Source: Ascaris suum (taxonomy: Eukaryota; Nematoda; Chromadorea; Rhabditida; Ascarididae). From it: 64,000 nt of DNA. The notes below the pieces were generated by a model, which saw only the letters and a list, made by a program, of their open reading frames with translations, was not told the DNA's origin and ran no database searches. Numbering within the stretch: position 1 is the first letter of the stretch; each line of letters opens with the position of its first letter. The stretch lies in the NCBI GenBank assembly GCA_013433145.1, contig CM024183.1, positions 6,925,703 through 6,989,702 on the forward strand, in the 5' to 3' direction. Shown in pieces: positions 3,201-49,641 of this stretch. Both the position numbers and the translations under genes were made by a program.

Positions 3201-3221
3201 GGACGATTTTGCAGCCGTTCT

Positions 3222-6200
3222 TCATTCGCTTGGTTGGCTGAAATTTCCGGTACTGTTTAAGGGCTTTCGACTGTCTTTTCTAAAAATAAGGTAAAGCAAA
3301 TTGTGATTTCGTTCAAGGAAGGTGTTGCGACAGCAATCGCGTATGACCGGACATTGTAATTTCAATGCACTCATTTCCTGTCATACCATAATTCCTCAAC
3401 CGCGCACGTACAACTTTCCAAGAAGTAAATATTTCATCAGCTGCTAGCGTGCTACTACGGCCGCGCCTCGCAAGTCGTCGATTTTGCGTATTGAATGTCT
3501 AAGAGATCTGCGTAACTGAACGAGTATTTCGAAGACTGGCGTAATTGATTTCTTTCATAAACAAGACCTCATGCCCATCCAAAGCTGAGAACAATCTCAA
3601 ACAGAACTCACATGCAAAGTTTGGTGCTAGTATTGCACGTCGAGTTTTTGTATGTTGTGCAGTCCAAATCCTCGGTGCAGCCATTTCCGAACTCATAGAT
3701 CTTCTGCTTGAAACGATTGCCTCTGTAATAGATTCTGACGGCGAAATGCGTAAAGTGAACGGAATGAAACGGTGCGCTTCAAAACCTCCCACTGTCGTGC
3801 ACGCTTCTTCGCTCTGATAGTTTTCGTGACACTCCATTTACTGTCTTTGTTATGAGGATATGTCGCTCTATGTTCTCGGAAATTTGCTTCGAAAATATTA
3901 TTGCTTTATTTAAGTGTATAGAGCCCAGCATCGTTTAAGTGCCATATTCAGTACCACTAAGTGTGCTTAATCTTTCATGTCACGCTTATCTTTATCAGTT
4001 ATAAGGATCAAAGGACACGTAATTCATGCTGCTTTGTTCCTTAGCAATCGGTGACTATGCTTTAACATCTAGGAGGCCCTACGGATTTTGGTCGCATCTC
4101 ATCGCAGCTGGGTTTCGGATCAGACATGAAGGAAGGGCGCGTGAGGATCGCTCCATGCGAAACGCCATACATTTGTCACTTACCAACGGACGGAAGGCAT
4201 AGTTTGAAAATAGCGCGTATCCGACGACGACGTCTGTTTGAGATACACTTAGACATTCATGGTTCTCAAAAAACCTCCCATAAGCCGAATTGAAATGAAC
4301 ATCGTAAATTACTCACGCAACGAAATAGTGGCATACAACGATAGTTGTATACCATGATCCTTGAGTGCAATTGGCGATACCACATCCGATCTTCGTGGTT
4401 GCTCCCCATGCTTGCTGCAATTTGAATAGGCTGTATGCAAACATGAGATGAAGTACAAACTGAATGCTTCAAGCACGGCATCACACTATACTAACCGAAG
4501 GCAAGGCAATGATAAGGGGTGCTATTAAGGAGGCAGGAAGTTCGCATTTGAGAGCTTTCCTCAACTGATTGAGCCGTTAATCCGAAGAACGCCAAAGGAA
4601 AGCCTTTGTTGAATTGTTGTTCGATTTCTCATGCACAAAGACGGTAGCTAGTGGCAGCCGCGATTTGTCGCTAAAGGAAACGGTCGAGCAGAGGCAAAAA
4701 GGAGGTGTGCACTGTGGTGGCCAGATTTAACTGAAGAAGGTGCTGATGGTTGTTAAATTCAACTAATATGCGGACCGGCGCAGGGAAGTGGATCAAATAG
4801 CGTACAAATGAGGGTATACTATGCAACGGTCGATCATGAAATATGAAGACGAGCGCTAGAGAAGGTGGCACAACATCTGTTTTGCTCCTCTTCTCTCAAG
4901 CCAACTTCATGAAATCTCATTGCAGATGACAGATTGTTCTCATTGATGAATTGATAAGTTAACGAGTCGCTCTTGCTGCGATCTCACAGAAGTGAAATTG
5001 TTTTTTTTGTCCAGCGAAACTCAAGTATTTGCAACTATGGACGATCTGCTCAATTCAACTCCCAGCTGCTCAATTCAGCTTCCATCTGCCTATGGTCCCT
5101 CTATGCCAAATTTGGAGAATCTCATCTTTGTTCACTGGTCTGTGATTTGAAACAACTGTTTCGCCGAAATCTGCTGCATGTTTCAGTTTCCATCAAAGAA
5201 TGCATTGTTCGCATTTCACGAATGTGGAAATGGTATAAACTTACGTATGTGTTTACTTAATCGTTGTCCGCAAGTTTAATTTCCGCGTCGAGGAGGAAGT
5301 GTAATCGGTTAATTGAGGGATTATTGTAGTTAAGGATTGTCGAAATGGAGTAGAAGGCAAAGCTTAAAGAAAAGAGAGATTTGTAATAACGATGTCTTGC
5401 GGAATCGCCCTTTGAAATGAAAAAGTTTCTTCCAAATCAGACAATAGGCGTCGCAGGTGGCACAAGCGGGCTTTTGCGTTCACAGTGTGGTTGAATTAAT
5501 TACTGAAGTTATCCCCTACCTGGCTCCAATGACCAGCAGTTGCAACTATTTTTTCGTTCATTTTGTAGTCGTCAGCACTGGTCATATTGACCAGCCCGAT
5601 TTCGTCCCACCAGAGCTGAGTAGCTTTCAGTGTGTTCGTATCTCAAAAGAAGCGATTACTTGCATATTTAAATGCAACCGTATAGAATCTGGAAAACCTC
5701 TGTGAAGAAGCGATTCTCTCACATCTCATTGTGTGTGTGAGCGATCTTTCTTTGCTGTCGCGGCCATCTCAGCTAAAGATGCCACATATAAACATGTAGA
5801 AAAGGATGTCATATGCCCACATGCGGGATTCAATCCCCCGATTTGCTTGATTTTCTGGACCCGTTTTTGAATTTTGAGCTCGTACTAAATACGGCGCAGA
5901 TTGAATTGAAGTTATAAATCAGCAAAAATGTTCACAAATGTTTTGCATATAATTCTGTCCTCTTTTTTAGATTTTCACTTGAACGTTTATAAGATTATAA
6001 CATTCTGAAATGTTCCTCGACATGTTACCACTATTTTCACGGAATTACAGGTCTGCTGAGCACTTTTCATGCCTGCGCGACCAGTGAGAAGCTTTTCTTC
6101 TAACCCAGTCACCTTGTGATTTCTGCTACCTCTGCCGAATTTCACCTCTTCAGTCGTTTCTGAGGGAAAGTGAGGCAATTGTAACACAGAAGCTTGCAGA

Positions 6201-7211
6201 AAAGAATGTAAAAAGTGGGAGATCAAAATATGGCTAGTTAATGCAAATGCGTGCAAACGGTAATTTCTCATTACCAGCCGCCTAATGTCAAATGGGCTTC
6301 GTGCATTGTGCGAATAGCGAGTGAAGAAATGAATTCACCAGTGGACAATTGCAGAATTCGAAGGTAGACTCGCTTTCGATAACTTTTCAGTCTTTCCCAC
6401 TAATCAAGGCAGAAATACGATCTAGTCGAAGAATGGAACGCATGACGTCAATGCATGCGAAAGCGGCGTACAAATTCTTCGATTTCCAGCAGAGGTTGCC
6501 TCTTGTTTTTAAAGGAATTTAGACACACCCGCGAACTCCAAACAGCAATCGGAGTTTTGATAGGGTGAGGAGAGAACTAGAAAAAGCCATCTCACCAATA
6601 GATTCGTGTCTGTCCATGATCCACATATAGATATTCTCTCCCGCCTGATTTCTATATTCATAAGTTGAGTGGCCGTATTTACAGGTGTCAGCCCATCTCT
6701 GTGCGACTTCTTCCAGCCCACAGTCCCATCTCTGGAAGGATCAGTATTAGCATAAAGCTATTTTGAGCCGTTTCATTGACCTTATTTGCTAGCGCTTGAG
6801 AGGGAGACCAAATAACCGCGCTCATTCCGACGAAGCCCCTCCGATTTGATCATAAAAAAAAGTCAGTGGGGAGGCTGTGTCTCCCAGAGTGTCAGGTGGC
6901 CGCAGACGCAATTATTTCCTGCATATGTGAACCAAACGAAGTACTCCACATCAACGAGTGGTCCCATGGCGTCTTTTGCAGACATTTTTTAGATATATAC
7001 GGTTGATGCTATCTACGGGTATATTGATGTTATCGAATTACCAACTCATAAATGTTTCTGCCGCTCTCCAGACGTTCACCGCGCGCATCTCTCACGTTTC
7101 CTTTGACGAGCTTTGATCGCAGCTCGTTGTGTTTGTTGACTACTGTCTCGCGGTTTTCAGGGGTGAATTTCTGATTATGCACATTGTCACAGGAAACTGC
7201 TGTCGCAGTGC
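3222..7211 (-). CDS. CAP/SCP-TAPS (ASP-like) secreted protein, copy 1
   Basis: Six exons on the minus strand: 7211-7042, 6731-6596, 5641-5520, 4414-4317, 3722-3612 and 3279-3222 (stop 3224-3222). Phases agree at every junction and give about 230 residues after the missing start exon. CAP hallmarks in order are HNELRS in the first helix, WDCGLEE, WADTCKYGHS, GENIY, LWWDEI, GHWSQ, then WGATTKIGCGIANC and VVCHY. A C-terminal Cys-rich segment (IYEFGNGC...DC...STC...KLC) and a short polar tail follow. These are extracellular proteins, abundant in the secretions of parasitic nematodes; the ligand is unknown. No signal-peptide exon is visible between 7,212 and 7,713, so the gene may use 5' exons of the adjacent ShKT module. 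The acceptor at 5,642 (TTTTGAG) is weak. No frame break was seen. Confidence 0.85.
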
Positions 7212-7713
7212 CTGAAAAATTGTGATTTGCAGTATGAAATGAAGAACTCGTTCAAAAGCGAGAACTGTTCTGTGCGATACGATGTAGTGATGGGGGGTCA
7301 CATTTCAACTACCTTCTGGGCGTGATCAATTCAATGAAGTAACATCGTCTCTGAAAAGGTAAATATATTCGGTGCATCGTCAGCCGTAACCAATCTGCTT
7401 CGAGCAATGGCCTGCTGCTATTATGCACGTCTTATAATGTGGCCTGCACCTTGCATTCGTTGACGATATATTATTCGGCACCACCTAAGGTCAGAACTTA
7501 ACTTCGAAGTTCCATGCACGTCCCACCTATTCACAATATTTATAATTTGCAGCTCTGAACTCCAAGTTAATAGTACTCGAATAACCTGCCATTACCTCGA
7601 ATGGATGCGCTGAATATCACCAAGTTTTACTCTCAGTTCATTAGGTTGCTTCAAGAGAGGTAGTGTATCTAGTGGTTTCGCAGCACACCAGGAAGAAATT
7701 TAGTTCCTGAACA

Positions 7714-9278
7714 TCAAAAGAACCTGCCTGGTCCCTTGGTACCCGACGGTCTAGTGGTTGGCCTTTCTTGTTCTGGTGTGGCGGTTGGCCGTTCTTCTCT
7801 TGGAGAGTTGGTCGTTTGTGCGGAATTTGTTCCTTTAGCCGACGGAACAGTCGTCTGCCCGCAAAGTTCGCAGGTTTTCCTGCACTTCTGCTCCCAATAT
7901 GGGTATTGCCCGCACAAATAGAAGCTCTGCTCACAATAGCGATAGGTATCATTACAGGCTGCAATTTCTCATCTTTCACGAACAAAGTCGGCATCGCTAT
8001 GTCGAATTTCGGCATAAAAATAAAGTCCCAGCTGCTTCTCTTCGGAAGAGATTTCTCTAGAGCTCTGACACTGTCGCATCATCTTCGAGAAGGCGAGAAA
8101 AGTGATTCACTTGGATTCGGCCATCTGTGCCTGACTATTTTGAACAACGAATGGGGAGCCAAATTTCATGGTTTTTCATACACTCAGTCGTACCTTTCTC
8201 CACGTTCTTCTCAGAATGTCTTGCTCCAGTACGAATTATTGAAAATTCAGCGCCTTTTAGTAAAATTAAACATCTCTTGAGAATTATTGGTAGGTTCAAG
8301 AAGTTCTGATCGTTGGTGGAACTGGCGAAAATCTTGCAAGGAAAAGCTGAAGTGACCTCAGGTAATCGAATTTAAGTGATTACAAGAGACTTGTAAGTAA
8401 CTTTATCACTTTCTTCGCCTACTGCAACGCCTTTCAGGCATGGTAACTATAAGCGCAAAAACTTACATGGGTCTTCGGTCGGCGGCGCTGGTGGCATTGG
8501 TTCTGAAATAAAATGAATCTCATATTTCGTCATTTTTTCATTTGCACCATGTCATTTTCAAATGTCTTCATGAGTGACACATCGTAGCACCTTGACGGTG
8601 CTATGCTTGCCGCTTTCTTGCTAATAAGTTTCTCGAATCTTTTCACACAATCGAATATTCTGTCAGTTTTTCTTATCATCGTATTTATGAAGCGTACTAC
8701 CGGTATTAATCAATATAGATTATGAAAGCTATACATACTGTCGCATAGTTTGCACGATTTTCGGCAATTCACTTGGGACTGGTAGAGACCGCATGTTTTG
8801 AAGTGGACGATATTGTGGCAAAAATCCACTTTGTCGACGCAATCTGCAATTCCGTTCAATTACTGTATGAATGTTTTCGAATTTTTGACGTTGCAATCAA
8901 ATGTTTATGGATCAAAGAGAAGATTTCGATTTAACTTATCAGCGCTATATATTTCTCTGCTTAGGTAATATCCATCCTTCAAGTTTATTTTCATACAACG
9001 AAGAATATAATTTTGCAGTTTTTGCTGAGGGCTGCGACAAGGTTGTGAAAAAAAAACACATGTAGTTAGGTCTTCCGGGTTGGTCAGAAGAACACGACAA
9101 TGAACTCTTTGTTGCAACTTCTAGCTGAGGTAAGAGTTGTTCGAACGTTTGTAAGCAGTACTTGCATCATCGTCAATGAGAACTGCACCACATTTTTGAT
9201 GTGTGCAATTTTGACAGACTCACCTTCACCGTTGACGACCCAGATGAGGGCGCAAAGAACGAAGGAGAGGTAACGCAT
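7714..9278 (-). CDS. Secreted protein with two ShKT domains, copy 1
   Basis: Four exons on the minus strand: 9278-9224, 8843-8739, 8502-8467 and 7958-7714 (stop 7716-7714), all joined in phase 1, giving 146 residues. Exon 1 is a signal peptide (MRYLSFVLCALIWVVNG). Exon 2 is one ShKT domain with six Cys (CVD, FCH, TCG, NCRKSC, KLC). Exon 3 is a Pro-rich linker (PMPPAPPTED). Exon 4 is a second six-Cys ShKT domain (CND, YCEQ, LCG, KCRKTC, ELC) followed by a Thr/Pro/Arg-rich tail. ShKT modules are small disulphide-bonded folds common in secreted nematode proteins; the target here is unknown. The CAP exons follow 500 bases downstream in the same strand and phase with no AATAAA between, and exon 4 contains a possible phase-1 donor near its end, so this could be the 5' half of a ShKT-ShKT-CAP gene. 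Confidence 0.85.
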
Positions 9279-9300
9279 GAGTGGCTATGTGTACTGCTCA

Positions 9301-9310
9301 CCTGTAAAAC
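9301..9310 (-). promoter_or_regulatory. Candidate trans-splice acceptor of ShKT gene copy 1
   Basis: On the minus strand GTTTTACAG ends 23 bases before the ATG at 9278, with no donor visible just upstream. This fits spliced-leader addition. A TATA-like run lies about 45 bases further upstream near 9,346-9,356. Confidence 0.45.
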
Positions 9311-11362
9311 GCAGTGATATGAAATTGCCAAAAACGACATAAATTTGTATATAATAAGTCTTGTGAACGATGGCGCACAAGCATTTCAATCAGAAGTGCC
9401 CATTTGCAATATGGAAGAGTAAAGCCAAAGAGAGCGGACGGCCGGAGGATTGGAGAAAATGATAAAGGTGGATTGAGAATTTAATTAAATGTTGAGGTCT
9501 TTTTCGTGACGGGAGGTCCCGCATATTGTATTTCTCATCCGCGATGCTTTGTTACCTCTTCTTTTTCCCCATTCCTCATCGTTTGTCAATTCCATTCCTA
9601 ATTCTACCTGCGTGGTAGGCAACCTGGCCCATCACCGTCACCTAGAATTTCTTCTCGACCATCCCAGATAGGTTTTTCCTTCGTCGCAAGAAGTTTAGCC
9701 GGCTTCCTACCTCCAAACGAGGTTTGGTGGCAGGATTTCTCTTTCGCTCGACCGTAGAGGTCGCATGGAGCGCAAGGAAAGCTGCACTGCATAGCATGGA
9801 TCCCTTACGCGCACTCGCTGCTGTTTATGTTCCCGAAAGGGATCATTTTGCAAGAGTGACACGGACTAAGTCTTTTTTGCAGCACCAGTAGCCGTGTGGG
9901 GCCACAAGGCTCCATAAGGCTCCATAACGTTGTGCCGTTTCTGAGGCACATTATATTTGCGTGAATGGCAATCTTGCCATCCAAGGACTAACTCTCATGC
10001 CGAAGTGCGTGATGACCAGAAAATGTTCACAGCTTGGTGAAACCTCAGGACCTTAGGCGGATGGGGAAATCAAGTTTCGAACAATCGCAAAATTCCATTA
10101 GCGGAAGCTCATGCCGATCTGACTCCATAGCCTGCTTGAACCCTTTTATACATCGTCCGTGCTTTGTTTTCGGTTCATAGCAGAACAGCTGGCTCGGCCT
10201 TTTGTTTTTGTACTATTCAAGAATATCAGCCGAGCCACTCTAGATGAAAATAAACACGCATTGTTAGGCCCACATCATGCATACCGAGTGCAGAAGGCAC
10301 CTGCTCTCTTCAAACATTAAAGCCGTTCAAATGGGAATAATTTGGGACTCATCCATGTGCTGCGTTCAACTAGCGGTATCCACGACAACGCAGGAAGATA
10401 CTATCAATGGTTTTCCAGCAATTACACGGGCTAGATCGCAAAGCTGTGCTAACAGTTACTGTAGGCTCAGTCATGGGTTTCGTTTTACGCAATTAGACTT
10501 AACTTCTTCAAAATCCTGCTCGGCTGTTAGGGCTTTTGGATGCTCCAGATTCATGAGCGCAGTTTTTTCAGGAACTACAGATTCGCCCAGTTACTGGATT
10601 GTCGCTTGCTGGTTTATTCTGGTACGTACTATGGCTATGCCTTATTCATTTTCGTAGTTGCGTTGAGAGGATACGCATTATGCGGACATTTCTTAACTAC
10701 TCTCCACAGGAGTCATCGTTGTCCAAATGGAGCAAAGCTTAAACGGTAGAAGATTAGTTGCACAGGGTGAAATTGACAAGGGATGGAAGTTCGCTTAGTT
10801 AAAATATTTTCGGGGGACTGGAAGGAACGTTTTCGCCGAGAACGCATCCCATTATTCTATTTATATCAGAAATATCCACGAAAACGCGACAGCTGAAACT
10901 GGCAGGGGTTAGTGAAGCAAAAGTTAGTGCAGCGGGCCGTACGTCATACTTGAAGGAAACGTCATTGTAAAAGTGGCTAACAGCTGGCGTAGTTGGGAGC
11001 CAGAAGCTGGCGCCGAACACAACCAACGACGGTTGAGCGGTATCCGAGTTGCGATCGGTTTGGTGCGGAATGTGGCGCTGTTTCGTGTGAAAACATTTTG
11101 CTGCATCAGCGACTACACCCGTTTCCGGAAAAGTGTCATACGTTTCAAAATGAACTTCATTTATTATTTCAATCAGAAATCTTTACTCACGACTAAGGAC
11201 TTTTTATGCGCTCGGACAGCGATTCCTACTAGCTTGCGTCATGTGAACATTCCTCTGGAAACGTTTCTTTTTTGCGACTTCCTTTTCGTAAAAATGCTTG
11301 TGGCGTTATCAAAAAGAATTAGTACCCCATCGCCGAGACACTCCTTACTGGTAGAGTTTCAT

Positions 11363-11698
11363 CTAGTCCCATTGATAGTGGCCATTGTTCAACTTTGCGA
11401 GAAGGGCACAGCGATGATGCAAGACAGCATTCGATTGCTGATGTCCAAGTTCTCTTTCAACGGTGCTGCACTCGAGAAGCCGCGGCATGTGGTTTCCAAT
11501 CGATTGACAACATTCCTTGAAAAACCTTCGTTCAGGCGGGCGGTGAAAGTCGCATATAGCAAGAGAATTTTCAAAACTAAGTAACCACCCAACACAGTCA
11601 TTGCTGTGCAGTGGCCCGTGTTCAAGGAATAAAGTGAAGGTAGGCATTGGCTGGAAAAGCAGAAGTTGAAACAACGAGCAGCATCCGTGAACGCACAC
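11363..11698 (-). other. Conserved unidentified minus-strand ORF (unit 1)
   Basis: This frame of 111 codons is kept in unit 2 (30,790-31,143, 117 codons). In the first ~56 codons the three base differences between copies all fall in third positions and are silent. Over the whole frame silent and replacement changes are about equal in number. It contains scattered Cys, including an ECCQ motif, but I recognise no family. A short frame in another phase near 11,680 resembles a signal peptide. It could be an exon of an unassembled gene or chance. Confidence 0.25.
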
Positions 11699-12601
11699 TT
11701 TGCAACAAGATTTGAAACGCGAATGTTTTCACATGGTTGACTGTTGCTTGATGTTTCACAAGCGAAATTTGCGAAGCTTCTCAAATCAAAGGAGACAAAG
11801 CAATTTTTAAATATTGGAATTTCTGGTGTTGAAGTTGCTTAATATTTTAATCTTTCGGCCTATTCATTAAAAATGCTGTTCCATCGACGATTAAGCCTGA
11901 ACTAGAATTTGTGAGGGGCATTATTCTACACTGCTTCCTGTCCGGCGATTGGTCTATAGACCGAAAAAATTCGTCAAGAGGAAATATATTTGTAGGGCAC
12001 CACACTTGAACTGGTCCAAGACGTAGTTGATTCCTTTTATCAAACACAGCTTAATGCTGTCTATGATTATGGAGGTTTTTCTGCTTAGCATGGCAGTAGG
12101 ATGTTCCTTATTTTGTGATAACATCTATCGTGCTTCACCGATGTGTTTCCTTGATTAAAGACTGACGCAGAATAGCATCATTTTGCTCACAAACGTATGA
12201 AAAGAAATATGTGAGCAAATGAGTTTGGCTGAATGCGTAGAGATCAGACAACGCCATCTTAACGAACACGTTCATCGTTCCTCTCACTCAGTTTAAAGTC
12301 AGCGTGCCTTGAAAAGTAATTTCTGACGCCTAGAACGAATGGTGGTATAGATCACGTTCTCGGCATGGGACGGCTCATTATCGACGTTTTGCAGGAGCGA
12401 GATGAGCTCAGCGCTGGAGTCTCTCAGACGATTAAACATAAGATCACTGGACATTTTAGGAATCGCCTTTATTGTGCGGCCATGGCTAAATCTCCGATAT
12501 TCGTGCAAGAAAAGCATTCCTTGTAGCCCTTTCCACAACACGTTATGAGACTCAATCCTCTCAATACATCATTGCAATGCACTGAGCTCCTTTATGTGGT
12601 T

Positions 12602-12853
12602 TTATAAATTTCTGTCTGCAGACGAAATTCTTCCAACGTAGTCCTCTGCGATGTATCTCCGTATGCCTGTCATTGCGATAGTTTGATCTAGACAAGCACT
12701 AAAGGTACAGTTACGGTCAGGAAACTCGATGAGATAATTTCTATCATTAACTGGGCTCCTATGATACTCTTTATATATTAATTCAGCAACTTCAAAGGAA
12801 AACACGGGCATTCGAAGGCGACGCGACAAACAAGAATCATAAGCATTTCGCAC
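12602..12853 (-). other. Unidentified minus-strand ORF, weakly phosphatase-like
   Basis: The frame includes the words EVAELIYKEYHR and NCTFSACLDQT. These faintly resemble the C-terminal strand and paired-Cys region of nematode histidine acid phosphatases, but the N-terminal RHGxRxP signature is not seen. The copy in unit 2 (32,002-32,295) shifts frame near its end by one base. Differences between the copies are mostly replacements. Treat this as an unassigned frame. Confidence 0.15.
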
Positions 12854-13801
12854 AAGCCAGATTGTAAAATAACGAATGCTAATAGATAAATGAAATCAAT
12901 CCGACAAATTGAATCAAGCAAGGATTGCACTGCGCAATAATTATTTTTCCCTGAACGGGTATTTTGTTCCGCTGTCGTCGGGAAACGAAAGGCCTATCTT
13001 ATACTAACGTTAGCGGTTTCCTTCCGAATGTGCGGAGTAACCTGTCCACACATGCGATTTCTGCAAAATGATGTCAGTAATGTGCAAAAGCGAGAATATT
13101 CGTCCGTTTTTTTCATGACGTTTACGAAGGAACTATTCGATCAACTTAGGGATATTATTGCGAGGAATTTATGGACCACAAATTTTTTTTCGCTCTTCAA
13201 GTTTCTCCTGAATGAGGGTCGATCTCATTCACTAATTGTCTTAAAGCGATTGTGGCATCAAAATATCGCTGCCAATCACTGCTATGACAATCCTCGTCGC
13301 AATTTCTAAAAGTTTGTGGATGTCCGAGATATTTCTTCCTTGCATGAGTTCCTAGCAGATAGAAGTGGTGGGATATGCATCCATGAAGTATAACAGAGCT
13401 GTTTAAGGAAGCGTGTGTGAAAGGATTTTGCTGCAATTTCCATTAAGATTTGCGTTATGTGCATCGTAGTCCTCTCGTTATGTGAACCAAAGTGTATCCC
13501 AAAAGCTAGCGTTTAATGGCAATTGCGTCGACTCGTGGTGAAGTCCGCAATCAATGTGAACACAGATCAGGAGCACTGTACGAATACCATTGCGTTGATC
13601 GAGGAAGAAAGCTTTATGTCTAATCAAACACAGATGAGTTGCTATAGCTAGAATATTCACCGAAATAGACCACATGAGGTAAACAATTTTGAGAGAGGCC
13701 AAAGCTCGAACTCTGGTGCACCCTGCAAGCTTCGCACCTGCGCAGAACTCCAGTTCATTGGCGGTCCATGAATCCGAAGCCAGCGGATTTCCACGACTTC
13801 T

Positions 13802-13847
13802 TCATTTTCTTGGTTGCCTGAAATGGGTAGTTTTTCTTCTGCCATTT
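13802..13847 (-). pseudogene. Divergent CAP last exon, unit 1
   Basis: Nucleotides 13,560-14,050 align with 3,030-3,460, the 3' end of the CAP gene. At the matching place an acceptor (TTGTTTAG) opens a 46-base exon that ends QPRK-stop, against QPSE-stop in the CAP gene. Further similarity resumes near 14,565 after ~500 unrelated bases. No upstream CAP exon with the conserved Cys is recognisable, so this is probably the tail of a decayed or strongly diverged CAP paralogue. Confidence 0.5.
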
Positions 13848-14049
13848 CTAAACAAGAGGTGAAGTCAATCGTAATTCCCTTTAAGTAAGTCGCTGAGACT
13901 GCAATCGTGTTTGATAGGACATTCTAATTTCAGTGCAATTATTCCCGATGATCATGGTACACTTTCTCAGCAGCACCTCAACAACTGATTGTCATCTAGT
14001 AAATGTCTGTTCAGCTGCCAGTGATACTAGTACGACAGCTTGTATGAGC

Positions 14050-15690
14050 TTTCCGTTAAAAACGTTTATGCTTAAGCCCGTTGCAATGTTTACACTCCTG
14101 ACAGATGTCCGTTAACCTCCCACACATTTAACTACTGGTGTTGTAATTCCCTTCCCTAGTCATGCTAAATATATCAAATGTGCAGAGTGAACGTTTTGAT
14201 CAAAAATAATAGTGCAGCTCAAAGGCGATATGATTCTGCAAAAGCCTTGTCCCATTTTTCATAGCAATGCAAGCGGCGGATAGCACGTTTAATGTTCACA
14301 TAAAAGGTTGGGTCATTCCAGCTCTGTGTCAGAGAAACATCGTTCAGCTGAAGACAGTTGCTGCTCCACTTTCATACACCATGTAACGTTGGCTACCTGT
14401 TGGAAATGAGATCTATGTCGACGCACATAATTTCCTTTGATGCTTTTTGTAAACGACGTCTTCAGATAGTTCGATTGTCGGCTAATCTCTAGTGTTGTAT
14501 CACTTGCCCGTCAAAATATTTCGGTGAACTAAATTAGCCATTGTTGAGAATGAAGCGCAAATCAATGGGCTGAATGTCTAAGATTTGTAAAACTGAAGCA
14601 TATTTCTCGTCGAAACTTTCACGAATATTTAACGTGCGCTGCAATTTTCTTATTATGAGCATCACCTCAATATGATTGTGGGACTTATCACGACTTCCCG
14701 TACCGTGAAGTTGGTCGCATGAATATGCTTTTGCTTTATCGTCTATCGACGCCAACCGATGGAATTTAGGCAGGTGGAAAGTCAAAGGCTTTGGAATCTG
14801 TATGGATACTATGGACTTCTGAGGGTCATCTGGCCTGAGTATGAACTGATTTTGAGGCACACAAAGCGTCATCAATGAAACCACTATAAGTTTTACTTCG
14901 TTGCTGCTATGTAGACAGTGGGCGCACCCTGAGAGCTGGGCCTGCAGTGGAAACCGAGCCGAATGCGAACGACACAACAAACCATCAAGTAACTGAGTAC
15001 AGTGCGCAAAATCTCAAATGGATTTGAAAAGATGCAGTCATATAAGCAGACGAAGTGCGCAAAATGATAGGCAAGAGTTAAAAATATATCACTGAACTCG
15101 ATGTGTGCAAGAAGAGTCGCCGCTTGTCGTTTCTATAACATCGCCCGAAAGCGGAATCGCAGCGTGGTTATTCTCCACAATAGATTTACTCTCCGAATGA
15201 GGGATCGTGTAAATCCTCCGTAACCACCGCTGAAGATGACCAAATCACCGAATATATGTATGGAAAGGCAAAGCAAGGCAAAAAATGCATTGAAGTGAAA
15301 TTACAGCTGTTCAACTCACTCAACGGCAACGGCTGGATCATGTAGTTATTATCATCAGCAAAACCATCTTCTTACGCAACTGATGGAACTGCACCGATAT
15401 TTTACAGTTACATCGTTTACATTGCACTGATCTTATAGTGGTTCAAAAGAAAGTACTTCATTACAGGGATAAAAATCCACCTCATAAACATAAGGATATT
15501 GCCATTTGAAGGCTTGTGGGACGTGTGGACCGCTGCTGTCTAAATATGCAAGACGCTAGAAGAAAAAACGATACTAAGGCCAGGCAAGAAATAGGTAAAC
15601 AAAGGAAACAGACGAGTTCTCATTCGTAAGTTTTTTACGACGACAACTACAAAAGTAAAGATGTCACAGAATAAAACACTCCATTAATAC
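14050..15690. other. No gene recognised; possible remains of a CAP paralogue
   Basis: A minus-strand frame at 14,534-14,980 is open but shifts in unit 2 (34,026-34,430), and its replacement changes exceed silent ones. A hydrophobic frame in unit 2 (34,357-34,758) has a stop in unit 1. A stretch near 15,150-15,200 weakly resembles the CAP exon with the WGATTK word. None of this supports a gene call. Confidence 0.4.
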
Positions 15691-15696
15691 ACAAGC

Positions 15697-16125
15697 ATGC
15701 GCTGTATTTCTCTGCATATATATTTCATTCGTACATATACGTTAGTCCTCAAATGCAAAATGTATAAACCTTCGTGTCCATTATCCGTTCACTTCACTAA
15801 ACACCTCGCGCCCGTCCAGTCTCCTTCTTTATTCCGACGAGTGCGACGGCTAAAAAACGTCTGGACGATTGCTGACTTTTGGAAAGCGACCGACAAATAT
15901 GTCGAATTAAGGGACATCGCCGAAAAACGACACAAGCCGTCGTTTACTCAAGGACTGAACATAAAATCTAGAACGCTCGGCGTTGTCCCACTCAACAGGA
16001 AGCCGATGCGCCGAAGAGACAAAGACATAGCGGCAGCATTATTAGCGCGTTACGCCATCCCAGTCGTTCAACAGCGAAAACGCCGGAAAAAGCAAAATAA
16101 GGTGCCGCTACGAAAGAAAGATTGA
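15697..16125 (+). other. Basic ORF at the right edge of the duplication, unit 1
   Basis: The open frame has 142 codons, but only its last ~80 codons, from about 15,883, are kept in frame in unit 2. There the two copies share an identical block of about 40 residues containing LGVVPLNRKPMRRRDKD, with five silent changes, plus one in-frame codon loss nearby. The end is very basic (KRRKKQNK). I do not recognise the family; a C-terminal exon of a nuclear protein or a transposon-encoded protein are both possible. The duplication ends within a few bases of its TGA. Confidence 0.35.
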
Positions 16126-16247
16126 AAGCCAAATGGAGCGTCATGATAACTGTCAGAGCGAAGAAGCGCGCATGACAGAGGGATGTTCTTAAGCGCACCG
16201 TTGCATTCAGTTTCCTTTACGCATTTCGGCATGAGATTCTATTACAG

Positions 16248-16728
16248 AGGCAATTATCTCGATAAGCCGATCTTTGAGTTGGGAAATGGCTGCAGCAAGG
16301 ATTCGGACTGCACAACATACGAAAAGTCGACGTGCAATACTAGCACCAAACTTTGCATGTGAGTTCTGTTTGAGATTGTTCTCAGCTTTGGATGGGCATG
16401 AGGTCTTGTTTATGAAAGAAATCAATTACGCCAGTCTTCGAAATACTCGTTCAGTTACGCAGATCTCTCAGACATTAAATACGCAAAATCGACGACTTGC
16501 GTTTGCGGCCGTAGTAGCACGCTAGCAGCTGATGAAATATTTACTTCTTGGAAGACGGTTGTGGTATGACAGGAAATGAGTGCATTGAAATTACAATGTC
16601 CGGTCATACGCGATTGCTGTCGCAACACCTTCCTTGAACGAAATCACAATTTGCTTTACCTTATTTTTAGAAAAGACAGTCGAAAGCCCTTAAACAGTAC
16701 CGGAAATTTCAGCCAACCAAGCGAATGA
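16248..16728 (+). pseudogene. Orphan last two exons of a CAP gene (inverted copy)
   Basis: Two exons on the plus strand, 16,248-16,358 and 16,671-16,728 (stop 16,726-16,728), match the CAP exons at 3,722-3,612 and 3,279-3,222 and keep frame and splice sites. The first starts GNYLDKPIFELGNGC and carries DC, STC and KLC. No CAP exon lies upstream because the inverted segment begins within the preceding intron, so it is a 5'-truncated fragment. Its sequence is closer to the copy at 21,618-22,121 than to that at 3,222-3,722. Confidence 0.75.
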
Positions 16729-19351
16729 AGAACGGCTGCAAAATCGGCCGTCTACTGAATCATGGACAGCCGGGTATATTGTGTTGTGCATAGGAGCGTT
16801 AGAGTTACAGCTCTGGTTCCCCTCAACATTTTCTACCTCATATGGTCTATTTCGGTGAATAATCAAGACCAAGCAACGCATCTGTAATCTGTTAGACATA
16901 AAGCTTTTTTCTCTGCGATCACCTCGTTTTCGCATCGACACTGTCTCTAGCCATGTTTATCGGTAATACACTCACACACCGGCTGTGAGCTTCGCCATGC
17001 ATCTAAGGAGCGACCATTAAACATTCACTTTTAGTGCACACGATCATGCACATAAAAACAGGAAGCTTGCAGATCTTAATGGTCGATGCACTAAAATCGC
17101 TACATAACTGTCTCCTTCCTCAGCGCTGCTCTTTCCATCTTATGTGCACAAAATTGTGCGCTTGCTTGTCGATAAGAAAAAGAAAGTTCTAAGAAACGGG
17201 GGTTTACCAGAGAAAGGAAGAAACAGGGGTCATAGTTGAAATATATGTGAAATAGAAATTGCAAGCAAGAAACTTCTGCCGCGATACCAACACATCAGAG
17301 GAACCGACTACAACGAACGACATTCGTTCGGAGTGGGAAGTACGACGTAATGATACAAACTTATAAGTGCTATGAAGCTACTTTACAACTGTGACATCTG
17401 TATCAGTTATGGCATTGCTTCATATAGCGCAGACGAACACCAACATATGACCATGAGAAAAGAGGCATCGGGCGACTGCGGTAATGACGTGTCGATCACC
17501 ACATTACATGGCAAATATCTAACCGCAACTCGCTAATACATGCGGGGTTATAGGTGTTTGAACCGAATTCTTTTCTTCGGTTACAGTACCTCCTTACTAA
17601 TCCCCGTCACCTTCGCTGGTACGCTCGAAACTGCTCGAGACCTCAGCAGTGCACGCTAACTAAATTTGCTCAACAATCAAAACTGGCCTGATCTGAAGAG
17701 AGCTCGTCCGCTTTTACCCCTTTCTGCTTTCTCTACGAACCATCACGAACCTCTTGGTTGGTTCTTTCAAAGCTTGCTCACAGGGCTCGAACAACTTTCC
17801 TCAGCTCTGCAATCGCCCATACGTCGAAATTGAGTAATAACATAGCCTCAGATAGTTAAGACGGCTACGTACCTCTTTGCTGATACGTCAACGAAAAAGA
17901 TGCTAGCATCTTGTAAAAAGACTCCTGAGGATCGGTGTTACTGACAAAGAATAATGTGCAAGTTGGGAAGAAAAACCCGAGCATTAAAAAATTGGTGTAG
18001 TACTGAAGAAACGTAGAAGGGCACCGCCTCCATGCGAACCACAACCATTTAGCTGAGACGAGACAGTCGCTCCGGCAAGAAGTCGAAACGGACAGTTTCA
18101 CGAGTTGCCCCGTTGAGATGCACTTAAATTCCACATCTGCAACAGCTCAATATCCATTCACCTTTCTTGCCTGATGCAAAATTGCCAGTGACGTTTTGTT
18201 GGTAAAATTCAAGACAAGGGGTGAAAGAGATATACATTCGTTGAGAAGAAATTTGAACAGCTATAAAACTTTGTCGTTGACATATCCCTCATAGGATTAT
18301 CTCTCAGTTACCTTCGATCGAATATTTCATTCGCAGTGCTCCGAATGGAAGCACATTCGCTCTTTTACGAACTATTCAGGTCCCTTTTACTAATTATTGG
18401 CGTAGTTGCGCTTCATTTTGCGATAATGGCATGAGTGCCGAGAGTTCATTCGCTCACTGAGAGGGAAACCGGCAAGGTCGCATGAGATTGACCTTTCCAT
18501 TAAATCGCAACGAAATTCCCATTTTATCAAAACCAGTAATTGTGCAGCGGTGAACAGAAATCTTCTGTTGCGCTCAGGTGATTATATGGTTGTTTCCATT
18601 ATTTCACTGAACAGATTTCGTAGTGGAGAAACCTTAACTGAAGTGATCGACTACCTCTTCATGTGGTCATTCAACTCGAAACTCCAGAAAGTGAGGAGAG
18701 GGAACATTTGCAGCTGAATGGTTCCCACAAGGAACCGAGCACTCGAAAGATACCAGGATAACGTTAATATCATTATTTGATGCCTAACTTTGGCTCCCTC
18801 AATTCTTGGCATGTGTAGGTGCTAAATCTGTGCTCCGATGAAACCAACATTGTGAACTCTCGCGCATTACGGATGTCATTCACGGGCGTCCTGCATGAAC
18901 GTTGAGTTTCATATATGAAATTCGCTATCTGATGCAGACAATGAAATGATGGGAGAGTGTCACAAAATTTGGGTTTTCCCAGAAAATCGACCGCAATCGG
19001 AGAGGCGATGGGCGATTACCGACGTTGAGTGTAGGACACTCAAACGTTTCTCCGGCACTGATGACAGTGGTTTTTTTTTGAAGATTGATAGTTGTACGGA
19101 GGCTCAGAGGAACATTCGCATAATCTCAGGATAGTTTAGTGAATTCTTTCATGTATGCGAGTTTTCATTGCTTTGAGCTTCATAATTGCTGGAAATAGAT
19201 TGCTGGAGTTCAACACGCATAGTTAGGAACAGTACATGTATTTGCCATGAGTGCATTTATTTCACTTGTTCCCGCACTCATACAACGATGTGTAATTACG
19301 AAAAGAGACAACTATTTTAATATGCTGAACGCTGAATGGGGAAATATGTGC

Positions 19352-19424
19352 TGAAGTAACTCGGATTGCACAAAACAGGAGCATTTGAAATGCAATACTA
19401 GCAGATTAGCACCAAACTTTACAT
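19352..19424 (+). pseudogene. Decayed CAP exon 6-like relic (inverted copy)
   Basis: This is the counterpart of the relic at 529-600 and carries the same frame-breaking insertion before the GTGAGT donor. The damage therefore predates the inversion and duplication. Confidence 0.5.
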
Positions 19425-19833
19425 GTGAGTTCTATTTGCGATTTTTCTGTACTTTGAATGCACTGAAAAAAAATGCTTATGAAAGTAAGCGATTATGCCG
19501 AGAATCGATGGTTGCAGCATTAATCATGAACCTCTTAGGAAGTCACTTTCTTCTTCCTCGCTTCGTTCTCCGATAGAATATGCTTAATTGGTCGATTACG
19601 ACGGTGAGATGAGCGGGAAATCACAACCGAAAAGACCGAAATGTCTGAATGAGACGATTTCGGCAAACGTAGTCCAACGGAAACCACCAGTCCTTGACCA
19701 GCTATCATCGGAATAACATCGAATATTGCAGTCGATCAGAAACTTCTCAGGTGTGGAAGCGCGTTATGCTTGCATAGTGAGATAATTATATTGGCGAAAT
19801 ATATTAGATATTGTATGTTAAACAAGCTTATTT

Positions 19834-19890
19834 AACGGAGATGGATGATGTGTATGTTAAAACAGAGCGTAAACGGAGATGGATGATGTG
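19834..19890 (+). repeat. Tandem 19-mer at the inversion junction
   Basis: The 19-base word AACGGAGATGGATGATGTG occurs at 19,834-19,852 and 19,872-19,890, separated by 19 other bases. Similarity to arm A fades just before the first copy, and the direct unit starts at the base after the second. It was not noticed in arm A itself and looks like a product of the joining event. Confidence 0.75.
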
Positions 19891-21617
19891 CGAATGAACT
19901 CTAGACACTCATGACAATATCGCAAAACGAAGCGCAGCTACGCCAATAATTACTAAAAGGCACGCGAATAGTTTATAAAAGAGCGAATGTGCTTCATTCG
20001 GAGCTCTGCGAATGAAATATTCGATCGAAGGTGACTGAGAGATGATCCTATGAGGGATGTGTCAACGACAAAGTTTTATAGCCGTTCAAATTTCTTCTCA
20101 ACGAATGCCCACCTCTTTCACCTATTGTCTTGAAGGTATACCAACAAAACGTCACTGGCAATTTTGCATCAGGCAAGAAAGGTGAATGAGATATTGAGCT
20201 GTTGCAGATGTGAATTTAAATGCATCTCAACGGGGCACATCAAGAGATTGTCCCATTCGTCTTCTTGCCGAAGCGACTGTATCGTCTCAGTTAAGTGGTG
20301 GTTGTGGTTCGCATGGGCTGGTGCCTCTTGTACGTTTCTTCAGTATTACATCACTCCGTTTCTTGATGCTCGGATTTTTCTTCCCAACTTGCACATTATT
20401 CTTTGTCAGTAACCCCGATTCTCAGCAATGTCTTTACAAGTTGTTAGCATCTTCTTCGTTGACGTATCAGCAAAGAGGTACTTACCGTCTTAACTATCTC
20501 AGCCTATGTTATTACTCAACTTCGACGTATGGGCGATTGCAGAGCTGAGGAAAGTTGTCCGAGCCTTGTGAGCAAGCTTTGAAAGAACCGACCAAGAGGT
20601 TCGTGATGATTGGTAGAGAAAGCAGAAAGGGGTGAAAAGCGGACGAGCTCTCTTCAGATCAGGCCAGTTTTGGTTGTTGAGCAAATTTAGTTAGCATTTA
20701 CTGCTGGAGGTCTCGAAGAGTTTTGAGCGTATCAGCGAAGATGACGTAGATTAGTAAGGAGGTACGGCAACCGAAGAAAAGAATTCGGTTCAAACACCTA
20801 TAACCCCGCATGTATTAGCGAGTTGCGGTTAGATATTTGCCATGTAATCTGGTGATCGACACGTCTCTACCGCAGTCGCCCGATGCCGCTTTCCTCATGG
20901 TCATATGTTGGTGTTGGTCTCCGTTATATGAAGCAATGCCATAACTGATACAGATGTCACAGTTGTAAAGCACTTCATAGCACTTATAAGTTTGTATCAT
21001 TACGTCGTACTTCCCATTCCGAACGAATGTCGTTCGTTGTAGTCGGTTCCTCTGATGTGTTGGTATCGCGGCAGAAGTTTAATGCTTGCAATTTCTATTT
21101 CACATATATTTCAACTATGACCCCTGTTTCTTCCTTTCTCTGGTAAACCTCCGTTTCTTATAAGTTTCTTTCTCATCTACACCTAAGCCTGCAATTTTGT
21201 GCATATGAGATGGAAAGAGCAGCGCTGAGGAAGGAGCCATTTATGTAGCGATTTTACTGCGTAGGCCATTAAGGTCTGCAAGCTTCCTGTTTTTATGTGC
21301 ATCATAGTGTGCACCAAAACTGGACGTGTACACCCCGTAGATGCATGGCGAAGCTCACAGCTGGTGTTTGAGTGTATTACCGATATTGAAAGAGGCCAGA
21401 GGCAGTGTCGGTGCGAAAACAAGGTGATCGCAGAGAAAAAAGCTTTACGACTAACAGATCACAGATGAGTTGCTATGTCTAGAATATTCACCGAAATAGG
21501 CCATATGAGGTAGAAAATGTTGAGAGGAACCAAAGCCCGAACTCTAGCGCTCCTATGCAGAACACCATATAGTCGGCTGTCCATGATTCAGAAGTCGGCG
21601 GATTTTGCAGCCGTTCT

Positions 21618-24600
21618 TCATTGGCTTGGTTGGCTGAAATTTCCGGTACTGTTTAAGGGCTTTCGACTATCTTTTCTAAAAGGGAGATAAAGCCAATCGT
21701 AATTTCCTTCAAGCAAGGTGTTGCGACAGCAATCGCGTTTGACAGGACATTGTAATTTCAATCACTCATTTCCTGTCATACCATAATTCCTCAACCGCGC
21801 ACGTACAACTGACTTCCAAGAAGTAAATATTTCATCAGCTGCTAGCGGTGCTACTACGGCCGCGCCACGCAAGTCGTCGATTTTGCGTATTGAATGTCTA
21901 AGAGATCTGCGTAACTGAACCAGTATTTCGAAGACTGGCGTAATTGATTTCTTTCATAAACAAGACCTCATACCCATCCAAAGCTGAGAACAATCTCAAA
22001 CAGAACTCACATGCAAAGTTTGGTGCTAGTGTTGCACGTCGACTTTTCGTATGTTGTGCAGTCCGAATCCTTGCTGCAGCCATTTCCCAGCTCAAAGATC
22101 GGCTTATCGAGATAATTGCCTCTGTAATAGAATCTGATGCCGAAATGCGTAAAGGAAACTGAATGCAACGCGCTTAAGAACATCCGTCTGTCATGCGCGC
22201 TTCTTCGCTCTGACAGTTATCATGACTCCATTTGGTGTCTTTATCATGAAGATATGTCACCATATGCGCATGGAAATTGGCTTCGAAAATAATGTTACTT
22301 TATTTGAGTGTATAGAGCCCAGCATCCTTTAAGTGCCATATTCACCACCACAAATGCTTAATCTTTCATGTCACGCTTATCTTTCTCGGTTATAAGGATC
22401 AAAGGACACATCATTCATGCTGCTCTTTTGCTTAGCCATTGGTGATTTGCTTTAACATCTAGGAGGCCCTTTGGATTTTTGTCATCTCATCGCAACTGGG
22501 TTTCCGATGAGATGTGAAAGCAGGGAGCGTGAGGATGATCGCTCCATGCGGAAACGCTATATATTTGCCACTTACCAACGAACGGAAGGCATAGTTTGAA
22601 AATAGCGCATATCCGATGATGACGTCTGTTTGAAATACACTTACACATTGATGGTTCTCAAAAAACCTTCCATAAGCTGTGTTGAAATGGACATCGTAAA
22701 TTACTCACGCAACGTAATAGTGGCACACAACGATAGTTGTATACCATGATCCTTCAGTGCAGTTAGCGATACCGCATCCGAGCTTCGTTGTGGCTCCCCA
22801 TGCTTGCTGCAATTTCAATAGGCTGTATGCAAACATGAGATGAAGTACAAGCTGAATGCTTCAAGCACAGCATCACATTGTATTAACCGAAGGCAAGGCA
22901 GTGACAAGGGTTGCTATGAAGGGGGCAGGAAGTGCGCATTTGAGAGCTTTCCTCAACTGATTGAGCCGCTAATCCGAGGAACGCCAAAGGAAAGCCTTTG
23001 TTGAATTGTTGTTGGATTTCTCATGCACAAGGACGATAGCTAGTGGCAGCCGCGATTTGTCGCTAAAGGAAACGGTCGAGCAGAAGCAAAAAGGAGGTTA
23101 TGCTGTGGTGCCCAGGTTTAACTGAAGAAGCTGCTGATGGTTGTTAAATTCAACTAATATGCGGACGGGCGCAGGGAAGTGGATTAAATAGCGTACAAAT
23201 GAGAGTAAATTATGCAATGGTCGATCATCAAATATCAAGAGGAGCGCTAGAGAAGATGGCACAACATCTGTTTTGCTCCGCTTCTCTGAAGCCAACTTCA
23301 TGAAATCTCATTGGAGATGACAGATTGTTCGCAGTAATGAATTGATAAGTTATCGAGTCGCTCTTACTGCGATCTCACAGAAATGAAATTGTTTTTTTTT
23401 TGTCCAGCGAAACTGAAGCATTTACAACTATGAACGATCTGCTCAATTCAACTCCCATCTGCTCAATCCAGCTTCCATCTGCCTATGGTCCTCTATACCA
23501 AATTTGGAGAATCTCATCTTTGTTCACTGGTCTGTGATTTGAAACAACTGTTTCGCCGAAATCTGCTGCATGTTTCAGTTTCCATCAAAGAATGCATTGT
23601 TCGCATTTCACGAATGTGGAATTCGTGTAAACTTACGTATGTGTTTATTCAATCGTTGTCCACAAGTTTAATTTCCGCGTCCAGGAGGAAGCTTGATCGG
23701 TTAATTTGAGGATTATTATCCGTAGTTAAGGATTGTCGAAATGGTGTAGAAGGCAAAGCTTAAAGGAGAGAGATGCTTTGTAATTAACGATGTCTTGCGG
23801 AATCGCCCTTTGAAATGAAAAAGTTGCGACCAAATGAGACAATAGGCGGCGCAGGTGGCACAAGCGGGCTTTTGCGTTCACAGTGTGGTTGAATTAATTA
23901 CTGAAGTTATGCCCTACCTGACTCCAGTGACCAGCGATTCCAAGGATGTAATTGCTCATTATGTATTGGGTATCAGAACTCAAATTGATCTCCTCGATTT
24001 CGTCCCACCACATCCCGGTAGCCCGCAACATATTGGTATCTAAAAAGAAACGATATTTGCATACCTAAATGCAACCGTATAGAATCTGGAAAACCGCTGT
24101 GAAGAAGCGATTCTCTCACATCTCATTGAGTGTGTCAGCGATCTTTCTTTGCTGTCGCGGCCATGTCAGCTAAACGCGCCACATATAAACATGTGGAAAA
24201 GAATGTCAATGGCCAAATGCAACAACTTGTTTGATTTTCTGCACCGTTTTTTGAATTTTGAGCTCGTACTAAATATGGTGCACATTGAGTTGAAGTCATA
24301 AATCAACAAAAATGTTCACAAATGTTTTGCATATACTTCTCTCCTCTTTTTGTAGATTTTGATTTGAACGTTTATAAGATTATAACATTCTTAAATGTTC
24401 CTCGACATGTTACCACTATTTTCACGGAATTACAGGTCTGCTGGGCACTTTTCATGCCTGCGCGACCAGTGAGAAGCTTTTCTTCTAACCCAGTCACCTT
24501 GTGATTTCTGCCACCTCTGCCGAATTTCACCTCTTCAGTCGTTTCTGAGGGAAAGTGAGGCAATTGTAACACAGAAGCTTGCAGAAAAGAATGTAAAAAG

Positions 24601-25601
24601 TGGGAGATCAAAATATGGCTAGTTAATGCAAATGCGTGCAAACGGTAATTTTTCATTACCAGCCGCCTAATGTCAAATGGGCTTCGTGCATTGTGCGAAT
24701 AGCTAGTGAAGAAATGAATTCACCAGTGGACAAATGCAGAATTCGAAGGTAGACTCGCTTTCGATAACTTTTCGGTCTTTCCCACTAATCAAGGCAGAAA
24801 TACGACCTAGTCGAAGAATGGAACGCATGACGTGAATGGCGTGCGAAAGCGGCGTGCAAATTCTTCGATTTCCGGCAGAAGTTGCCTCTTGTTTTTAAAG
24901 GAATTTAGACACACTCGCGAACTCCAAACAGCAATCGAAGTCTTGATAGGGCGAGGAGAGAATTAGAAAAAGCCATCTTACCGATAGAATCGTATGTGTC
25001 CGATTTGCTCCACTTATAGATATTCTCTCCCCCATTCTTTCTATATTCATAAGTTGAATGGCCGTATCTACAGGTGTCAGCCCAATTCTGTGCGCGTTCT
25101 TCCATATCACAGTCCCATCTCTGGAAGGATCAATATTATCATAAACTTATTTTGAGCCATTTCATTAATCTTATATGCTAGCGCTTGAGAGGGAGACCAA
25201 ATAACTACGCACATTCCGATGAAGCCCCTCTGATGTGATCATTAAAAAAAAGTAAGTGGGGAGGCTATGTCTCCTACAGTATCAGGTAGCCGCAGACGCC
25301 ATTATTTTCTGCATATGTGAGCCAAACTGAAGGACTCCACATCATCGAGTGGTCCCATGGCGTCTTTTGCAGACATTCTATACATGCACACCGTTGATGC
25401 TATCTACGGGCGTATTGATGCTATCGACTTACCAACTCATAAATGTTTTTACCGCTCTTCAGATATTGACCGCTCGCATCTTTCACAGTTCCGTAGCGAC
25501 CATCGAACGCAGTTCGTTGTGTCTGTTGAGCACTACGTTGCGGCTTTCAGGAGTGAATCTCTGATTACGCACATTGTTACAGGAAACTGCTGTCGCAGTG
25601 C
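21618..25601 (-). pseudogene. CAP/SCP-TAPS (ASP-like) gene, copy 2, frameshifted
   Basis: The same six exons as copy 1: 25601-25433, 25120-24982, 24039-23918, 22806-22709, 22121-22011 and 21675-21618 (stop 21620-21618). Exon 1 here is 169 bases against 170. The frame is lost near 25,493, shortly after HNELRSMVA, and runs into a stop. All later exons are open, keep their splice sites and retain the conserved CAP words (WADTCRYGHS, GENIY, MWWDEI, GHWSQ, GCGIANC). The second exon is one codon longer than in copy 1. Replacement differences from copy 1 are heavy in exons 1-3 and light in the fourth. It is either a recent pseudogene, a one-base assembly error, or a gene read from another start. Confidence 0.75.
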
Positions 25602-27651: not shown

Positions 27652-27673
27652 GAGTGGCTATGTGTACTGCTCA

Positions 27674-27683
27674 CCTGTAAAAC
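27674..27683 (-). promoter_or_regulatory. Candidate trans-splice acceptor of ShKT gene copy 2
   Basis: On the minus strand GTTTTACAG precedes the start codon at 27,651 by 23 bases, exactly as in copy 1. A TATATATAA-type run lies about 45 bases upstream. Confidence 0.45.
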
Positions 27684-27699
27684 GCAGTGATATGAAATT

Positions 27700-33240: not shown

Positions 33241-33248
33241 CGAGTTCT

Positions 33249-49513: not shown

Positions 49514-49641
<128 letters not shown>

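What the first reader, a model, noticed from the sequence alone, without database searches (positions are those of the whole stretch)
3222..25601. CAP exons diverge far more between duplicates than their introns do
Exon 5641-5520 differs from its partner 24039-23918 at roughly 30% of bases, and only about half of its 40 residues are shared. The neighbouring intron stretch 5,987-6,271 against 24,372-24,656 differs at about 2%. The exons at 7,211 and 6,731 also carry many replacement changes, whereas the CGIANC exon and all ShKT exons are nearly unchanged. Coding DNA evolving faster than adjacent intron suggests strong diversifying selection on the CAP surface, or local gene conversion that imported exon sequence from another CAP paralogue.
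Basis: seen in the sequence. Interest (0 to 1): 0.78.

Follow-up and report, generated by a model that had tools for sequence, protein, structure and literature searches.

The report
Old exons inside young duplicated genes
Two neighbouring copies of a roundworm secreted-protein gene have rather similar introns but one much older, very different exon, most likely because pieces of the genes were copied between relatives while old exon versions were kept; similar patterns are known from human colour-vision genes and snake toxin genes.

Summary
The window is from Ascaris: a ShKT-CAP gene (copy A, 9278-3222), tandem copy B (27651-21618) and inverted 3' fragment C. The central measurement holds: exon 7 (5520-5641) differs at 40/122 bases with 22/41 residues shared, intron 5987-6271 at 4/285. 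The generalisation is only partly right: exons 5, 6 and 9 lie in blocks whose introns are nearly as diverged (12-18%), exon 8 is conserved, and the quoted intron is a low-divergence tract. Selection alone does not explain exon 7, because synonymous sites are raised too (dS 0.77, dN 0.36, flanking introns 0.06-0.07); no single exon has dN significantly above dS. B's exon 7 is nearest to a Parascaris protein (35/41), and A+B as one exon-7 clade is rejected. Exchange is visible: C sides with A, then with B across the exon 9/intron 8 border, and public proteins P0001 and P0011 combine exon types. Best reading: gene conversion homogenised introns and moved segments while old CAP exon types were kept, as in primate opsins or snake-toxin ASSET. 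Retention and import are not separated.

The parts
3222..9278 (-). Copy A: ten-exon gene, signal peptide + two ShKT-like regions + Thr/Pro-rich stretch + CAP domain, spliced frame intact, 377 aa
   Evidence: Splice model and translation; CAP PF00188 E=1.2e-18, no other Pfam family at E<=0.001, so ShKT is named from its cysteine pattern; exons matched by A. suum protein P0001
7042..7211 (-). Exon 5 (CAP a), partner 25433-25601
   Evidence: dN 0.186, dS 0.231; 30/169 bases differ
6596..6731 (-). Exon 6 (CAP b), partner 24982-25120, three extra bases in B
   Evidence: dN 0.184, dS 0.097; 20/136 bases differ
5520..5641 (-). Exon 7 (CAP c), partner 23918-24039: the divergence peak
   Evidence: dN 0.362, dS 0.773; 40/122 bases differ
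5538..5637 (-). 100-base tract at 38% divergence inside exon 7 (5538-5668 at 33% under the stricter penalty, which then runs 27 bases into intron 6)
   Evidence: Change-point segmentation, two penalties; scan maximum, 0 of 1000 shuffles
5979..6551 (.).
   Evidence: Segmentation, lower penalty; 5987-6271 4/285
6552..7329 (.). Block at 13.9% holding exons 5 and 6 and intron 5 together
   Evidence: Segmentation, both penalties
4317..4414 (-). Exon 8 (CAP d, CGIANC), partner 22709-22806
   Evidence: dN 0.042, dS 0.289; 9/98 bases differ
3612..3734 (-). Exon 9 (CAP e), partner 22011-22133, third copy 16237-16359 (+)
   Evidence: dN 0.189, dS 0.077; C reads as the B type, 36/36 residues compared
3644..3826 (.). 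Tract in which copies B and C agree against A (31 sites; 2 B-odd, 1 C-odd), crossing the exon 9/intron 8 border
   Evidence: Site list and counts; maximum chi-square 90.7, 0 of 2000 permutations, best break 3348/3413
21618..27651 (-). Copy B of the gene; frame broken by one base in exon 5 near 25,493
16131..19835 (+). Fragment C: inverted copy of 117-3839 (exons 9 and 10 plus downstream flank)
   Evidence: Self-comparison 95.4%; exon matches at 16237-16359 and 16672-16725
1498..16126 (.). Duplicated unit, left copy (partner 19886-35586)
   Evidence: Self-comparison, 91.5% and 93.6% over two blocks

Best explanation
Copies A and B are tandem duplicates of an Ascaris secreted ShKT-CAP gene whose parts have different ages. 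Shown: divergence is patchy; exon 7 differs strongly in synonymous and replacement sites alike; its A and B versions are not each other's closest relatives; and a third fragment switches allegiance from A to B across an exon/intron border. Inferred: interlocus gene conversion repeatedly homogenised introns, the ShKT half and flanks, and moved short segments between family members. Old CAP exon types persisted, either because conversion over exon 7 is selected against, or because exon-sized pieces are imported from older paralogues with which only exons still pair. Exon 7 encodes the helix with the WWDE motif, the loop after it and the helix that ends in GHWSQ. The conserved CAP frame is kept while the part between is switched, which could change the surface or ligand of a secreted parasite protein.
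For: Exon 7 synonymous divergence 11.5/23.8 against 121/1998 in introns 6+7, p=5.5e-9; exons 5-9 pooled, synonymous 30/144 against 226/2833 in introns 5-8, p=2.4e-6; ShKT half no excess, p=0.82. Eleven segments at the lower penalty against one in each of 10 shuffles; five at the stricter one, for which no shuffles were run. A/B/C: 108 B-odd and 4 A-odd sites in 1997-3348, 31 A-odd and 2 B-odd in 3644-3826, 0 of 2000 permutations. Exon 7 of B: 35/41 with Parascaris P0013, 22/41 with A; A+B as one exon-7 clade rejected, p=8.5e-7; exon 6 groups B, P0001 and P0013 at 97/90. P0001 (A. suum) matches B at every comparable residue of exons 5 and 6 and the first 15 of exon 7, then switches type: 38 B-like and 9 P0004-like sites, 0 of 5000 permutations. 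P0011 (A. lumbricoides) joins an exon 7 identical to that of P0005 (41/41) to an exon 9 identical to B/C.
Against: Only one window of DNA was available; the whole-genome search did not complete, so no donor gene was found. In the exon 7 tree the pairing of B with Parascaris P0013 is the nearest by distance but not a supported branch; the supported branches there hold A with A. lumbricoides rows. The clade test could not be run on exon 6. P0001 and P0011 are database entries and could be chimeric assemblies or faulty gene models. Exons 6 and 9 lean to replacement (dN/dS 1.90 and 2.46; pooled p=0.055). At the stricter penalty the exon 7 tract runs 27 bases into the intron and the exon 9 block is not separated. 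Copy B may be a pseudogene in this assembly. Retention and import are not separated.
Confidence: 0.72

Rival explanations
1. Strong positive selection by point substitution on the CAP surface after a recent duplication raised exon divergence above the neutral intron rate.
For: Replacement divergence exceeds intron divergence in exons 5, 6, 7 and 9 (p=0.009, 0.001, 3e-11, 0.03); dN/dS 1.90 in exon 6 and 2.46 in exon 9, pooled one-sided p=0.055.
Against: Exon 7 synonymous sites are raised as well (p=5.5e-9); no single exon has dN significantly above dS; a protein of another genus has an exon 7 nearer to B's than A's is, so B's type is unlikely to have arisen after a recent duplication.
Confidence: 0.11
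2. A and B are two haplotypes of one locus wrongly placed in series, and the pattern is allelic divergence with old exon polymorphism.
For: A-type protein P0005 is from A. lumbricoides and B-type P0001 from A. suum, which could be alleles; B carries a frame break not seen in P0001.
Against: The arrangement is complex (A, inverted fragment C, then B, with about 1.1 kb extra in B) rather than a plain repeat, and divergence varies by segment from 1% to 38%. Even if true, the exon 7 peak over introns stands.
Confidence: 0.14
3. Relaxed constraint and sequencing errors in a decaying copy B.
For: Copy B has a one-base break in exon 5.
Against: Decay alone would not make an exon diverge faster than its introns; read in the frame of A, copy B has no stop before the end, and P0001 matches B's exon 6 at all residues compared.
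Confidence: 0.03

Closest known systems
Primate red/green opsin exon 5 divergence peak (Teshima and Innan 2008, as told in the review PMC3924837; passages of the review seen, the original not read)
   Same: Tandem duplicates homogenised by conversion in introns, with an exon divergence peak, the exon being closer to orthologues than to its own paralogue.
   Different: There the key residues and the phenotype are known; here 19 of 41 residues differ and function is unknown. Orthology to Parascaris introns could not be tested.
ASSET in viperid three-finger toxin genes (Doley et al. 2008, PMC2474615; abstract and the section on segment switching read)
   Same: Similar introns, strongly different short exon segments inside a kept scaffold of a secreted protein.
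   Different: Here related versions of the segment exist in other proteins and another genus, and a switch between copies is visible in a third fragment; the paper says the origins of its new segments are not known.
Helminth CAP proteins: BmVAL-1, Na-ASP-1, Na-ASP-2
   Different: The Ascaris gene carries two ShKT-like regions and a Thr/Pro-rich stretch before the CAP domain.

Membership tests
CAP superfamily (PF00188) | Match to the CAP profile above the curated score | tested here: met
   68.5 bits against cut-off 21.1, residues 167-315 of copy A
CAP superfamily (PF00188) | CAP fold | tested here: met
ShKT domain | Match to the family profile | tested here: inconclusive
   No Pfam hit at E<=0.001 in copy A apart from CAP; the cysteine pattern in exons 2 and 4 is read by eye
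Divergence peak under interlocus gene conversion | Exon divergence well above that of flanking introns of tandem duplicates | tested here: met
   Exon 7: 38/100 against 34/323 upstream, 40/122 against 10/200 downstream
Divergence peak under interlocus gene conversion | Exon closer to another species' gene than to its paralogue while introns are not | tested here: inconclusive
   At protein level exon 7 of B is nearer to P0013 than to A and A+B is rejected as a clade, but B+P0013 is not a supported branch in exon 7; no Parascaris intron DNA was available
Divergence peak under interlocus gene conversion | Direct conversion tract between copies | tested here: met
   A/B/C switch, 0 of 2000 permutations; direction and donor not determined
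ASSET | Short segments replaced inside an exon while the scaffold is kept | tested here: inconclusive
   P0001 against B switches within exon 7 and frame motifs are kept, but P0001 may be chimeric
ASSET | Altered molecular target | not testable with these tools
   No functional data

The most novel reading that the evidence does not exclude
Ascarid ShKT-CAP genes form a recombinational repertoire: the second half of exon 7, the stretch between the WWDE helix and GHWSQ, is exchanged as a module among paralogues and old versions are kept across genera, so that a parasite varies one patch of a host-facing secreted protein on a fixed frame.
Probability: 0.35. Interest if true: 0.75.

Novelty: new member of a known kind. 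Interest (0 to 1): 0.5.

Why it matters
If right, a plain dN/dS test or tree on these genes would mislead, because exons and introns of one gene have different histories. It would also point to one short segment of a parasite secreted-protein family where variation is kept or moved between genes, a testable place to look for host interaction or antigenic difference. The general mechanism is known from opsin and venom genes. In the listings of searches I saw no title or abstract start that describes it for ascarid CAP genes; those searches cover only the held open-access library and up to 15 listed papers each.

Tried and rejected
Selection as the sole cause: rejected for exon 7 by synonymous sites. 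Search for a donor in the window: translated searches with P0001-P0010 and copy A gave matches only in copies A, B and C and in weak exon 9-like relics (551-619, 19277-19402), with nothing beyond 27,651. Whole-genome CAP search: six identical requests, none answered. Mapping variable residues on coordinates: no model file was in the box, so only secondary structure was used. The bootstrap of dN-dS for exon 7 alone gave disordered values, probably because dS was undefined in many resamples, and is not used. One codon of exon 6 in the codon table is a hybrid made by dropping a three-base insertion of B; it touches one of 45 codons. Fractional counts were rounded for all Fisher tests, and none is corrected for the number of tests. 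The maximum chi-square test on A/B/C used positions from 1997 on; 1497-1996 was left out and is mixed (27 A-odd, 39 B-odd, 22 C-odd sites), as is 3349-3643 (3, 3, 7) inside it. The split of exon 7 into 15 and 26 residues was chosen after seeing the alignment. Automatic cutting of exon 9 failed for all nine database proteins tried and was done by hand for four (P0001, P0002, P0007, P0011). Of the 36 database proteins, eight entered the exon trees; P0003 lacks exon 7 and the rest are more distant or were not cut. The clade test failed on exon 6 because A equals P0005 and B equals P0001 there. Five open frames elsewhere in the duplicated unit had no Pfam match at E<=0.001.
Full report
What the window is. 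The best protein matches to the spliced gene are Ascaris suum F1L9M7 (P0001, 81%) and A. lumbricoides proteins (P0002-P0005), then Parascaris univalens (P0006). The window is therefore from Ascaris or a very close relative. Self-comparison shows a duplicated unit, 1498-16126 against 19886-35586, with an inverted fragment C at 16131-19835 that copies 117-3839. Copy A runs 9278-3222 on the minus strand in ten exons with an intact frame of 377 residues: a signal peptide, two short cysteine-rich regions that look like ShKT (no Pfam match at E<=0.001, so this rests on the cysteine pattern), a Thr/Pro-rich stretch and a CAP domain (PF00188). The exon 4 donor had to be taken as GC rather than GT to keep the frame (sequence), and P0001 has the same residues across that junction. 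Copy B has a one-base break in exon 5; a version of that exon without the break exists in P0001, identical on both sides (36 and 20 residues).

The observation. Exon 7 differs at 40/122 bases and shares 22/41 residues; the quoted intron stretch differs at 4/285. Over the 14,518 ungapped columns of the unit, 5538-5637 is the most divergent 100-column window (38 differences; largest in 1000 shuffles 23), and the best window away from it is in exon 5. Change-point segmentation between 3150 and 10900 gives eleven segments at the lower penalty, against one in each of ten shuffles, and five at a stricter penalty (no shuffles run there). At the lower penalty the exon 7 tract lies wholly inside the exon; at the stricter one it is 5538-5668, 27 bases into intron 6. 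The other divergent exons behave differently: exons 5 and 6 with intron 5 form one block at 13.9% under both penalties, and exon 9 with the end of intron 8 another at 18.7% (lower penalty only), in which exon and intron are equal (17/91 and 16/89, p=1). The quoted intron lies in the low tract of a gene whose introns average 3-13%.

Selection or age. By Nei-Gojobori counts exon 7 has dN 0.362 and dS 0.773; flanking introns 6 and 7 are at 0.057 and 0.069. Synonymous sites exceed neighbouring introns with p=5.5e-9 in exon 7, 0.02 in exon 8 and 0.023 in exon 5, and do not in exons 6 and 9 (p=1 each) or in the ShKT half (p=0.82). In exon 7 eight of 22 codons with an unchanged residue differ in sequence. 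Replacement sites exceed introns in exons 5, 6, 7 and 9. Taken alone no exon of 5-9 has dN significantly above dS (one-sided p 0.78, 0.16, 0.99, 0.999, 0.19); exons 6 and 9 pooled after the fact reach p=0.055, and exons 5, 6, 7 and 9 pooled give dN/dS 0.95, p=0.64. So exon 7 looks older than its surroundings; accelerated protein change is not shown, and for exons 6 and 9 it is not excluded.

Where the exon types come from. Copy B's exon 7 matches Parascaris P0013 at 35/41, its A. suum relative P0001 at 30/41 and copy A at 22/41; copy A matches A. lumbricoides P0005 and P0011 at 36/41. Holding A and B together in an exon 7 tree of ten rows is rejected (p=8.5e-7); in that tree A groups with P0005 and P0011 (99/97), whereas B and P0013 are nearest by distance without a supported branch of their own. 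Exon 6 places B and P0001 with P0013 at 97/90 (the clade test could not be run on exon 6). The A and B types therefore probably predate the split of the two genera, on 41 and 46 columns of protein.

Direct signs of exchange. From 1997 to 3348 fragment C agrees with A against B (108 B-odd, 4 A-odd, 7 C-odd sites); 3349-3643 is mixed (3, 3 and 7); from 3644 to 3826 C agrees with B against A (31 A-odd, 2 B-odd, 1 C-odd), across the exon 9/intron 8 border; the last 13 columns again have B odd (6 sites). In the maximum chi-square test 0 of 2000 permutations reach the observed value. C encodes B's exon 9 (36/36 residues), and so does A. lumbricoides P0011, which however carries the exon 7 of P0005 (41/41). 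P0001 equals B in the comparable residues of exons 5 and 6 and the first 15 residues of exon 7 and then changes type (38 B-like and 9 P0004-like sites, one B-like site left in the second part, 0 of 5000 permutations). All five differences between A and P0005 in 143 residues fall in the last 26 residues of exon 7 (p=1.4e-4, with a cut chosen after seeing the data). Database proteins may be chimeric or badly modelled, so the DNA evidence of A/B/C carries the most weight; it does not tell direction or donor.

Compared with what is known. The pattern works like the red/green opsin case, where introns are homogenised and exon 5 keeps a divergence peak under selection (review PMC3924837, passages), and like ASSET in viperid three-finger toxins, with similar introns and switched exon segments (PMC2474615, abstract and one section). 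The held main text of a paper on Toxocara CAP proteins (PMC4921028, passages) has no occurrence of the words exon, duplication, selection or ShK; a paper on A. suum secretions (PMC4046973, passages) names venom allergen only in its references. I class this as a new member of a known kind.

What remains open. Retention of old exons under intron homogenisation and import of exon-sized pieces from older paralogues both fit. The nearness of B's exons 6 and 7 to Parascaris favours retention for the A/B contrast, while P0001 and P0005/P0011 favour import in the second half of exon 7. 

Noticed in passing
window 510-649 (-) and 19304-19403 (+): Degraded exon 9-like stretches (69% and 67% to B's exon 9 region) downstream of copy A and inside fragment C; the two stretches are 98% alike over 229 bases. 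Remains of a further copy of the 3' end.
   Followed up: partly
window 25433-25601: Copy B's exon 5 has a one-base break; a public protein with the same residues on both sides and no break exists (P0001). Pseudogene or assembly error is not decided.
   Followed up: partly
window 29277-30375: Copy B's unit holds about 1.1 kb that copy A lacks near 10917-10928.
   Followed up: no
window 9808-10613: Tract upstream of the gene start with only 1.1% divergence between the copies, lower than both neighbours.
   Followed up: no
window 49516-49637: Perfect (AT)61 dinucleotide run.
   Followed up: no
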